A program made the position numbers and the translations under genes. The notes under the pieces were generated by a model that saw only the letters and a list, made by a program, of their open reading frames with translations, made no database searches and was not told where the DNA came from. DNA of 64,000 nt from Geoglobus ahangari (GTDB taxonomy: Archaea > Halobacteriota > Archaeoglobi > Archaeoglobales > Archaeoglobaceae): positions 558,001-622,000 of the forward strand of contig NZ_CP011267.1 in the NCBI RefSeq assembly GCF_001006045.1, given 5' to 3'. Below, piece after piece: positions 50,129 through 52,463 of this stretch (within the stretch, counting starts at the first letter, position 1; each line of letters begins with the position of its first letter).

Positions 50129-50739
50129 GACTGCTGGAGAACATCTACGCCTACACGTGGGGAAGCGCCTTCTACGACTCATCCAACAGCTACGTTATTG
50201 TGGATGGCGAAGCTGTTCTCATCGACCCCGGCACGTACAAGAGCTACACCAACCTGTTCGGCCTGCTGAGGAACGACGGAATCGAGGGGATAGACTACGT
50301 GCTCAACACCCACCTCCACAAGGATCACTGCGAGAGCAACCAGATGTTCATGCGGAAGGGAGCGCTCGTGGGCTTTGACGAGAGGGAAAGGGTGGTGAGC
50401 CAGTTCAGCTACTCCCCCGACCTCAGGCTCGGAAAGGTGTTCGTTGTTGGCGAGACGGAGATAGAGGTGGTCAGGACACCCGGGCACTCCCCCGGAAGCC
50501 TGACGTTCTTCGTTCAGGAGCACGGTGTTGCGATAACCGGTGACCTGATTTTCGAGAACGGAATTCCCGGGAGGTTCGACCTGTACGGCAGCGACAGGCG
50601 GGAGTTCATAAGATCGCTCGAGAGGCTTGTCAGTCTGGAGCCTGAATATCTGCTGCCCGGACACAGGAGGGTGATGAAGGGCAGGAAGGGGATAGCCGCG
50701 CTTGTTGAGAAGGCGATAGAGATTGTGACCCACTACTGA
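50125..50739 (+). CDS. MBL-fold metallo-hydrolase
   Basis: 204 aa with the zinc motif NTHLHKDHCE (HxHxDH, near 60-68), TPGHSPGSLTFF, GDLIFENGIP and PGHRRVMKG. It is glyoxalase II-like in size but a specific substrate cannot be inferred. It overlaps xthA, and 59 bp downstream begins the small peptide gene, so the peptide and radical SAM gene may be read through from this operon or have their own promoter. Confidence 0.88.
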   Translation: MRLLENIYAYTWGSAFYDSSNSYVIVDGEAVLIDPGTYKSYTNLFGLLRNDGIEGIDYVLNTHLHKDHCESNQMFMRKGALVGFDERERVVSQFSYSPDLRLGKVFVVGETEIEVVRTPGHSPGSLTFFVQEHGVAITGDLIFENGIPGRFDLYGSDRREFIRSLERLVSLEPEYLLPGHRRVMKGRKGIAALVEKAIEIVTHY

Positions 50740-50798
50740 TGTATTACCATTGTAACACAAAAATTAACCTTTTATTCTTTTCCAGCAGACCCTCAAAC

Positions 50799-50882
50799 AT
50801 GGCCTACAGCTTCATGTACGAGTGCGAGGTTGGCGGGGGACTCACCCACTACGTCATGCCGGGCGAGGAGTCCCCGTTTTAA
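50799..50882 (+). CDS. 27-residue candidate precursor peptide for the adjacent radical SAM enzyme
   Basis: ATG at 50799, TAA at 50880-50882, too short for routine gene calling. The peptide begins MAYSFMYECEVGGG and ends PGEESPF, with a single Cys (position 9) followed by a GGG turn and a THYVMPG segment. The stop is 17 bp before the ATG of a radical SAM/SPASM gene that has a strong GAGGTGATC ribosome site. A TTTTATT run about 28 bases before the ATG is a plausible TATA, making this a leaderless message. A small acidic peptide in front of a SPASM enzyme is the standard RiPP arrangement; modification is inferred. Confidence 0.62.
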   Translation: MAYSFMYECEVGGGLTHYVMPGEESPF

Positions 50883-50899
50883 TTTTTTGAGGTGATCTC

Positions 50900-52135
50900 A
50901 TGAAGGAGCTGGAGTTCGACGGCTTCAGGGTCATTCTCGATCCCGACACAAACTTCTGGGCGATTTATGAGCGCGAGCTTCCGGAGAACGTTCTGAGGTT
51001 CTACGAGGAGAACAGGAGTGTGCTTGAGGAGAGGATGAGGAGGTACAGGTTCGAGGTGGACTTCAACACCGCCTACATAAACCCGACCGAGAGGTGCAAC
51101 GCCAGCTGCGAGTACTGCTACATCCCTCCTGAGATCCGGAGAAGGGGCAGGGAGATGAGCTATGAAGCGCTCAGAGACATACTCGAGAGGCTCGAGAGCC
51201 TTGGAGTGAGGAACGTGATATTCCACGGTGCAGAGCCGCTTCTGGTGAAGGGCGCAATCTTCAGGGTGATGGGTGAGTTTGACTACCGTTACGGCATTCA
51301 GACCAACGGATTTCTGCTCGAGGAAGAGGACGTGGACTTCCTGAAAAGCATGAACGCGAACGTTGGCATCTCTTTCGATTCACCCTTCAGGGAGGTTGAG
51401 GATTTTCTTAGAGGGAAGGGACATTATGACAAAATCATGCAGATTCTCGACTGGTTTGACGGGTACGCGAACCTGAACGTGATAACAACCATAAACAAAC
51501 ACAACTACACCCAGCTTGAGGAGATGGTTGATCTGCTCGCGGGAAAGGTGAGGCTCGTTCTGATGAACCCCGTGAGGGGGACGAGCGAGGGTGGGAGAAG
51601 GCTGAGACCCGATCCAGTGAAGGCCGCGGAGCACTTCTTGAGGGCCGTTGAGAGGGCGATATGGCACACAAAGAACGGAAGGAGAATCGTGATAGGCGAT
51701 TTTGCCAACATCCTGCTGGGCATAGTTGCCCCCTACTCGAGGGTTCTGCAGTGCGACATCTCTCCATGCGGGGCGGGCAGGAGGTTCATCTCAATAACTC
51801 CTGAGGGCATTTTCCCGTGCGGGGAGTTCATAGGATTTGAGGAGTTTGGAATTGGCCTTGACGAGCTCGAGCTTGCGGGCGAGAAGTTCTTCGAGGTAAG
51901 GGAGAGGGTCGTGGAGCGCATAGAGGAGTGCAGGGACTGCGAGTACAGAAACATCTGCGGAGCGCCGTGTCCGGCTGAAGTCTACGCGGAGAAGGGAACG
52001 ATGTTCGAGAAGGCCCCGTTCTGCGAGTTCTACAAGGCAGTCATAGAGAAGGCGTTCGAGGTGATCCACAGAGGGGATCTGGAGCACGTGGTGAACCTGA
52101 GGGCCCTGAAACGGGTTTACGAGATCCGGGCGTGA
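50900..52135 (+). CDS. Radical SAM/SPASM protein, probable peptide-modifying enzyme
   Basis: 411 aa. The SAM cluster site is CNASCEYC (Cys66, 70, 73). The C-terminal SPASM-like region has eight cysteines (285, 290, 307, 344, 347, 353, 357, 375), including CDISPCGAG and CRDCEYRNICGAPCP, enough for two auxiliary [4Fe-4S] clusters. SPASM enzymes are best known for peptide maturation such as thioether formation. Archaeal homologues have been grouped in peptide-modifying families, from memory. The 27-residue peptide gene just upstream is the likely substrate. ATG at 50900 after GAGGTGATC. Confidence 0.88.
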   Translation: MKELEFDGFRVILDPDTNFWAIYERELPENVLRFYEENRSVLEERMRRYRFEVDFNTAYINPTERCNASCEYCYIPPEIRRRGREMSYEALRDILERLESLGVRNVIFHGAEPLLVKGAIFRVMGEFDYRYGIQTNGFLLEEEDVDFLKSMNANVGISFDSPFREVEDFLRGKGHYDKIMQILDWFDGYANLNVITTINKHNYTQLEEMVDLLAGKVRLVLMNPVRGTSEGGRRLRPDPVKAAEHFLRAVERAIWHTKNGRRIVIGDFANILLGIVAPYSRVLQCDISPCGAGRRFISITPEGIFPCGEFIGFEEFGIGLDELELAGEKFFEVRERVVERIEECRDCEYRNICGAPCPAEVYAEKGTMFEKAPFCEFYKAVIEKAFEVIHRGDLEHVVNLRALKRVYEIRA

Positions 52136-52193
52136 TGATGGGTCAGTGAAAGTTTAATATATAGGTGTCTTCAAGGAATTACTGGTGGGTGGA

Positions 52194-52463
52194 ATGATCG
52201 GAGAAGTCTCATCGATTCTCGGACTTAGGGTTTACACCGATGAGGGAAGATACGTTGGCAGGATAGCCGACCTCTCCATAGACATAGACACGAGGCAGGT
52301 TAAGGGAATAGCGGTTGTTGATGTTAACAGGATGCTGATAGACACGAGGGCGAATGGCGTGATAATTCCCTACAGGCTCGTGAAGGCCGTCGGGGACATC
52401 GTGATAATCAAGGACGTGTTCAAGAGGATGGAGAGGAAGAAGGAGCAGACCGAGGAGACCTGA
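52194..52463 (+). CDS. PRC-barrel domain protein
   Basis: 89-aa PRC-barrel (as in photosynthetic reaction centre H subunit and RimM): ISSILGLRVYTDEGRYVGRIADLSIDIDTRQVKGIAVVDVN then VIIPYRLVKAVGDIVIIKD. Such proteins are widespread in archaea, with proposed roles in cell division (CdpB-like) or RNA processing. ATG at 52194 with GGTGGG just upstream; a GTG at 52185 is also possible since TTAATATATAGG at 52154-52165 is a clear TATA region. It converges on the JAMM gene with 44 bp overlap. Confidence 0.85.
   Translation: MIGEVSSILGLRVYTDEGRYVGRIADLSIDIDTRQVKGIAVVDVNRMLIDTRANGVIIPYRLVKAVGDIVIIKDVFKRMERKKEQTEET

What the first reader, a model, noticed from the sequence alone, without database searches (positions are those of the whole stretch)
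50799..52135. 27-residue peptide gene beside a SPASM radical SAM enzyme: candidate RiPP pathway
Seen: a 28-codon frame (MAYSFMYECEVGGG...) too short for usual gene calls, ends 17 bp before a radical SAM protein with CNASCEYC and eight C-terminal cysteines; it has its own TATA-like run and the enzyme a strong ribosome site. Known: SPASM enzymes modify small peptides encoded next to them. Inferred: Cys9 followed by GGG, with acidic residues after it, is a likely crosslink or thioether site. No protease or exporter is adjacent, so maturation may use general factors. The small gene may simply be conserved but unannotated in Archaeoglobales genomes.
Basis: partly seen in the sequence, partly recalled or inferred. 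Interest (0 to 1): 0.85.

Follow-up and report, generated by a model that had tools for sequence, protein, structure and literature searches.

The report
Peptide-enzyme pair tied to B12 assembly
A 27-residue peptide gene and the radical enzyme beside it form a catalogued but unstudied pair (CbpA/CbpB), and in this archaeon and its relatives the pair shares a private DNA switch with cobT, the gene that attaches the lower base of vitamin B12-type cofactors, so it probably serves B12 assembly rather than making a secreted peptide.

Summary
The 27-aa gene (50799-50882) is real: against the nearest relative all 12 base differences are at third codon positions (pS 0.68, pN 0.015). The enzyme (50900-52135) is NCBIfam CbpB (TIGR04163: 478.6 bits, cut-off 375); the peptide is a divergent CbpA (TIGR04164: 20.9 bits, cut-off 35). 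In 71 archaeal and bacterial loci (66 distinct peptides) cbpA lies upstream of cbpB; 70 peptides have exactly one Cys and all carry C-x(4-7)-GL[ST/A]H[YF][VILM].

New here is a function link. cbpAB lies inside cobamide-synthesis operons in two bacteria and beside cobT, cobN or cbiM in another archaeal lineage. In the window genome the palindrome TTGTATTAC-N4-GTAATACAA occurs at two places only: about 59 nt before cbpA and about 59 nt before cobT, whose product activates the lower base of the cofactor. At cbpA it tracks an RHH regulator: 16/18 genomes with the regulator have it, 0/9 without.

Best reading: CbpB docks CbpA by its N-terminal strand and crosslinks the Cys/Ser-His-Tyr core, giving a peptide-derived factor for cobamide nucleotide-loop assembly. 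The chemistry and exact step are inferred. The pair is catalogued; I found no paper on its role.

The parts
50739..50760 (.). Palindromic operator ATGTATTAC-CATT-GTAACACAA (consensus TTGTATTAC-N4-GTAATACAA), shared with cobT elsewhere in the genome
   Evidence: one site in the window (0.01 expected), two in the genome; the other is about 59 nt before cobT (G000:C1:1360994-1361015)
50768..50776 (+). TATA-like element (CCTTTTATT) about 26 nt before the peptide ATG; spacing fits a leaderless transcript
   Evidence: Sequence; conserved in same-genus relatives; function inferred
50799..50882 (+). cbpA-like precursor peptide gene, 27 aa
50889..50896 (+). Ribosome-binding site GAGGTGAT of cbpB
   Evidence: Sequence
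50900..52135 (+). cbpB, radical SAM/SPASM peptide-modifying enzyme, 411 aa
   Evidence: TIGR04163 478.6 bits, cut-off 375; Radical_SAM Pfam; fold nearest to CteB

Best explanation
cbpA-cbpB is a self-contained RiPP-type module that serves cobamide (B12-type cofactor) synthesis, most likely assembly of the lower nucleotide loop at or around the CobT step. SHOWN from sequence: a selected precursor gene with a single Cys and the core C-x(4-7)-GL[ST]H[YF][VILM], strictly paired with a SPASM radical SAM enzyme; placement in cobamide operons in several lineages; an operator shared with cobT; that operator's presence follows an RHH + AIRS-like protein. INFERRED: that protein binds the palindrome and senses a cobamide intermediate; CbpB holds CbpA by the strand just before the Cys (AYSFMYE here) and makes a radical crosslink involving the Cys and the GL[ST]H[YF] core; the matured peptide, whole or trimmed by general peptidases, acts inside the cell with CobT as a cofactor-like or carrier factor for lower-base attachment.
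For: Family match of both genes. Coding selection. Pairing in 71 loci and absence of CbpA from 13 genomes without a full CbpB. Operons: G485 cbiC-cbpA-cbpB-cbiX-cbiM-...-bzaF-cbiQ-cbiO-cbiD-cbiE-cbiL-cbiF-cbiG; G671 cbiA-cbpAB-cbiM with cobU, cobD-cbiP and cobT upstream on the same contig; cobT directly after cbpB in six archaea of two other families, and cbiMNQO/cobN around it in relatives. Private operator at cbpA and cobT in G000, G001, G002, G003, G009, G016 and, weaker, in G020, G135, G144; regulator/operator co-occurrence 16/18 against 0/9 at cbpA, and at cobT 8/8 genomes with the regulator against 0/2 without. CobT in 30 of 31 CbpB-positive bacteria. Two fusion models place the pre-Cys stretch as a strand.
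Against: No experiment. Most bacterial and several Archaeoglobaceae loci have no cobamide gene nearby. Operator counts come from related genomes and are not independent. CobT is also common without CbpB (archaea), so CbpAB is not essential for CobT. The core of CbpA is unplaced in the models (pLDDT below 50), so the modified residues are not identified.
Confidence: 0.55

Rival explanations
1. Cobalt handling: the matured Cys/His peptide is a cobalt chaperone or chelator that passes cobalt to the chelatase (CbiX/CobN) or secures it when scarce.
For: Invariant Cys and His; cbiX, cbiM, cbiN, cobN neighbours in G485, G671 and f7 archaea.
Against: In Archaeoglobaceae the shared operator is found at cobT, not at cobalt transport genes; a single Cys and single His make a weak metal site unless the peptide dimerises or is crosslinked.
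Confidence: 0.18
2. PQQ- or mycofactocin-like product: CbpAB makes a small redox cofactor needed for a corrinoid reduction or adenosylation step rather than for base attachment.
For: Two-gene, widely spread, no exporter; precursor invariance fits a defined small product.
Against: No conserved dedicated peptidase or oxidoreductase beside the pair; the operator partner is cobT.
Confidence: 0.12
3. A generic RiPP (signal or antimicrobial peptide) with only incidental cobamide neighbours.
For: RiPP-type architecture; many loci without cob genes.
Against: No exporter, immunity or protease gene conserved with it; core invariant over archaea and bacteria, unlike variable antimicrobial cores; recurrent cob operons and the cbpA/cobT operator.
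Confidence: 0.1
4. The small frame is a regulatory leader (attenuator) ORF for cbpB, not a substrate.
For: Short and immediately upstream of cbpB.
Against: Amino acids rather than codons are conserved; no terminator-like hairpin; in G345 the peptide gene is far from cbpB and still intact; variable spacing to cbpB.
Confidence: 0.02

Closest known systems
NCBIfam TIGR04163 (CbpB, rSAM_cobopep) and TIGR04164 (CbpA, cobo_pep)
   Same: CbpB above the curated cut-off; peptide upstream with the same C...GL[ST]H[YF] core
   Different: This peptide scores below the CbpA cut-off and has an Archaeoglobaceae-type GGLTHY...SPF tail; the operator, regulator and cobT link are not part of the family description seen here
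CteB / SCIFF maturase (5WGG, 5WHY; TIGR03974), thioether-forming
   Same: Nearest solved relative by sequence and fold; rSAM plus SPASM
   Different: 18% identity; TIGR03974 74.8 bits against a cut-off of 425; CbpA has one Cys, not six
PqqA/PqqE and mycofactocin MftA/MftC
   Same: Short precursor beside a SPASM enzyme, intracellular cofactor-type product (comparison from own knowledge)
   Different: No dedicated chaperone or peptidase conserved with cbpAB; TIGR03962 63.5 bits against 265; different precursor motif
Cobamide nucleotide-loop pathway (CobT and partners)
   Same: Shares an operator or operon with cbpAB
   Different: CbpAB is not one of the established steps of that pathway (own knowledge)

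Membership tests
CbpB (NCBIfam TIGR04163) | Score above the curated cut-off | tested here: met
   478.6 bits against 375
CbpB (NCBIfam TIGR04163) | rSAM CxxxCxxC and SPASM cysteines | tested here: met
   CNASCEYC plus eight C-terminal Cys, seven invariant and one at least 90%
CbpB (NCBIfam TIGR04163) | Modifies the adjacent CbpA peptide | not testable with these tools
   Needs biochemistry
CbpA (NCBIfam TIGR04164) | Score above the curated cut-off | tested here: not met
   20.9 bits against 35, E 1.8e-4; homologous, but not a member by the curated threshold
CbpA (NCBIfam TIGR04164) | Shared core motif and position upstream of cbpB | tested here: met
   32 of 32 scanned peptides match the model at E<0.01; C, G, L, H invariant
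SCIFF/ranthipeptide system (TIGR03974) | Maturase score and six-Cys precursor | tested here: not met
   74.8 bits against 425; one Cys in the precursor
TIGR04084 (AF0577-type) and TIGR04083 archaeal rSAM/SPASM families | Score above the curated cut-off | tested here: not met
   82.3 against 225 and 76.2 against 300
Cobamide-synthesis module | Operon or operator shared with cob genes | tested here: met
Cobamide-synthesis module | Loss alters cobamide or its lower ligand | not testable with these tools
   Needs genetics
RHH-controlled cbpA/cobT regulon | The RHH protein binds the operator | tested here: inconclusive
   Only co-occurrence, divergent adjacency in f7/f9 archaea and an autoregulatory-looking site in G020

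The most novel reading that the evidence does not exclude
The CbpA-derived product is itself what CobT handles: a ribosomally encoded lower ligand (for example a modified His/imidazole-containing fragment), or a peptide that stays with the cobamide as its lower axial ligand or carrier, which would make CbpAB the first gene-encoded-peptide route into a cobamide.
Probability: 0.1. Interest if true: 0.95.

Novelty: new member of a known kind. Interest (0 to 1): 0.64.

Why it matters
The pair is catalogued but, as far as the searchable literature shows, unstudied. Tying it to CobT gives it a testable function and would extend peptide-derived factors (PQQ, mycofactocin) to vitamin B12 metabolism. 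How lower-ligand attachment is controlled in archaea and many anaerobes is poorly known; this offers a two-gene handle with a candidate regulator and operator. It also shows that a 27-residue gene scoring below the curated cut-off of the matching family model is real and under strong selection.

Tried and rejected
Chance ORF: rejected. Attenuator ORF: rejected. GGG/acidic stretch as the core: rejected, only the last Gly is invariant. Conserved local neighbours in the window (metallo-beta-lactamase fold, exonuclease III, PRC-barrel, JAB): not conserved with cbpAB beyond the genus. CobT presence against CbpB in archaea: uninformative; in bacteria 30/31 against 23/29, weak (Fisher 0.049). BzaF/ThiC: one homologue nearly everywhere, so ThiC and BzaF could not be told apart and the lower ligand was not resolved. 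Order-level searches around G485 and G608 added few pairs. A second rSAM near the Methylovirgula pair is a distant, non-conserved neighbour. Literature searches for CbpA/CbpB, the motif, Archaeoglobus RiPPs and CblR gave nothing relevant.

Full report
What is there. The frame at 50799-50882 encodes MAYSFMYECEVGGGLTHYVMPGEESPF. Its stop lies 17 bp before the ATG of a 411-residue radical SAM protein (50900-52135). NCBIfam names the enzyme CbpB (TIGR04163, 478.6 bits, cut-off 375) and sees the peptide weakly as CbpA, 'modified peptide precursor' (TIGR04164, 20.9 bits, cut-off 35). The pair therefore belongs to a catalogued precursor/maturase family, and the peptide is a divergent form below the curated threshold. 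No paper in the held library mentions it.

The small gene is real. Between the window and its closest relative (G003) all 12 base differences are at third codon positions, with pS 0.68 and pN 0.015; window against five relatives gives pS 0.56-0.83 and pN 0.015-0.15. A peptide gene of the same kind lies upstream of every archaeal CbpB examined; in the G157 MAG the copy is frameshifted. Bacterial loci have it too. The one exception, G345, keeps an intact peptide gene elsewhere in its genome. A genome-wide profile search found one strong CbpA in each of four CbpB genomes tested, and nothing better than E 0.03 in 13 genomes without a full CbpB.

What is conserved. In 71 loci (66 distinct peptides; a few loci come from two records of one genome) the pattern is C, 4-7 residues, G-L-[S/T, once A]-H-[Y or F]-[V/I/L/M]; 70 of the 71 contain exactly one Cys. 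Invariant in the 33-row alignment are Cys9, Gly14, Leu15 and His17, with Tyr18 nearly so. One archaeal peptide ends right after GGLTHFV, so the C-terminal tail is dispensable.

The enzyme. CbpB has the rSAM CxxxCxxC, and of the eight C-terminal cysteines seven are invariant and one at least 90% conserved in 51 homologues. The nearest solved structures by sequence and by fold are CteB, the SCIFF thioether enzyme (5WGG, 5WHY), then the anaerobic sulfatase maturase. In some genomes peptide and enzyme are in frame, so reading the single stop as glycine gives a peptide-enzyme fusion. Two were modelled, one from the window's genus and one bacterial. Both fold well (mean pLDDT 90 and 87) and both place the stretch just before the Cys as a strand (pLDDT about 85 and 68), while the core stays undetermined (below 50). 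This suggests leader-strand docking; coordinates could not be inspected, so the contact itself is inference.

Function: operons. Most loci have no fixed neighbours, but cobamide genes recur. In G485 cbpAB sits inside a long anaerobic operon: cbiC, cbpA, cbpB, cbiX, cbiM, cbiN-like, bzaF, cbiQ, cbiO, cbiD, cbiE, cbiL, cbiF, cbiG. In G671 it lies between cbiA and cbiM, with cobU and a cobD-cbiP fusion upstream and cobT on the same contig and strand. In six archaea of two other families cobT follows cbpB directly, and in relatives cbpAB sits among cbiMNQO and cobN. CobT, CbiM, CbiX-type, BzaF, CobN and CbiP were identified by profile or by BLAST to annotated genes; the other cbi/cob names rest on my reading of the sequences and on pairwise matches.

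Function: a shared switch. Just ahead of the TATA-like element of cbpA lies the palindrome TTGTATTAC-N4-GTAATACAA (window 50739-50760). With up to three mismatches it occurs once in the window against 0.01 expected, and at two places in the whole genome: here, and at 1360994-1361015, about 59 nt before the start of cobT. A base-composition model expects 0.4 such sites per genome, and the reversed control pattern gives none in the window genome. Of ten Archaeoglobaceae cobT genes, the window genome's included, eight carry the palindrome at the same distance, three of them at four mismatches. An RHH (CopG-type) protein with an AIRS-like C-terminal part is divergently adjacent to cbpAB in f7/f9 archaea and present in the window genome at 837663-838511. 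The operator follows it: at cbpA 16 of 18 genomes with the protein have the operator and 0 of 9 without it (Fisher 1e-5, not corrected for relatedness); at cobT the two genomes lacking the operator (G010, G157) are the two lacking the protein. In G020 its own gene carries the site. I infer that it is the regulator. From memory, AIRS-fold alpha-ribazole kinases exist (CblS), so it may sense a lower-ligand intermediate; this was not tested.

How it probably works. CbpB binds the strand before the Cys, and radical chemistry joins the single Cys to the GL[ST]H[YF] core or crosslinks within it. The product stays inside the cell, since no exporter or protease travels with the pair, and acts with CobT in attaching the lower base of the cofactor. 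Because genomes with CobT and the regulator but without CbpB exist, it is an accessory rather than an essential factor. Cobalt handling is the main rival. That the NCBIfam short name 'cobo' reflects the same cobamide link is my guess.

Identity of the genome.

Verdict. The pair is a new member of a catalogued family whose likely role, cobamide nucleotide-loop assembly under a shared cbpA/cobT operator, I did not find reported in the searchable literature.

Noticed in passing
L184:170-1584 (G345:C22:73121): In G345 the CbpA gene (MKKVKVFSYRRVCKGVNGTGLSHYILLTPSK) is not beside cbpB but 120 nt downstream of a different radical SAM/SPASM-like protein of 398 aa, which may act on the same peptide.
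   Followed up: partly
L001, L017, L018 upstream of cbpA (about -60): Genomes lacking the RHH regulator carry a different palindrome, TCTTGATTT-C-AAATCAAGA, at the same distance from cbpA, suggesting that another regulator took over.
   Followed up: no
L043 (G157:C10), upstream of cbpB: cbpA is split by a frameshift between the Cys part and GGLTHYV; a sequencing error in this MAG or a recent decay.
   Followed up: no
L110:3849-4775 and L104:4894-5748; G000:C1:837663-838511: RHH (CopG-type) proteins with an AIR-synthase-like C-terminal part: a candidate cobamide or alpha-ribazole-sensing regulator family in archaea, also in genomes that have cobT but no cbpAB.
   Followed up: partly
window 52185-52463: A PRC-barrel protein follows cbpB in the window genome and in three same-genus genomes (G001-G003); not conserved elsewhere.
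   Followed up: partly
G006:C66:6-146: A fragment matching only the last 47 positions of CbpB at a contig end in a same-genus MAG counted here as lacking CbpB; it may be an assembly-truncated copy.
   Followed up: no
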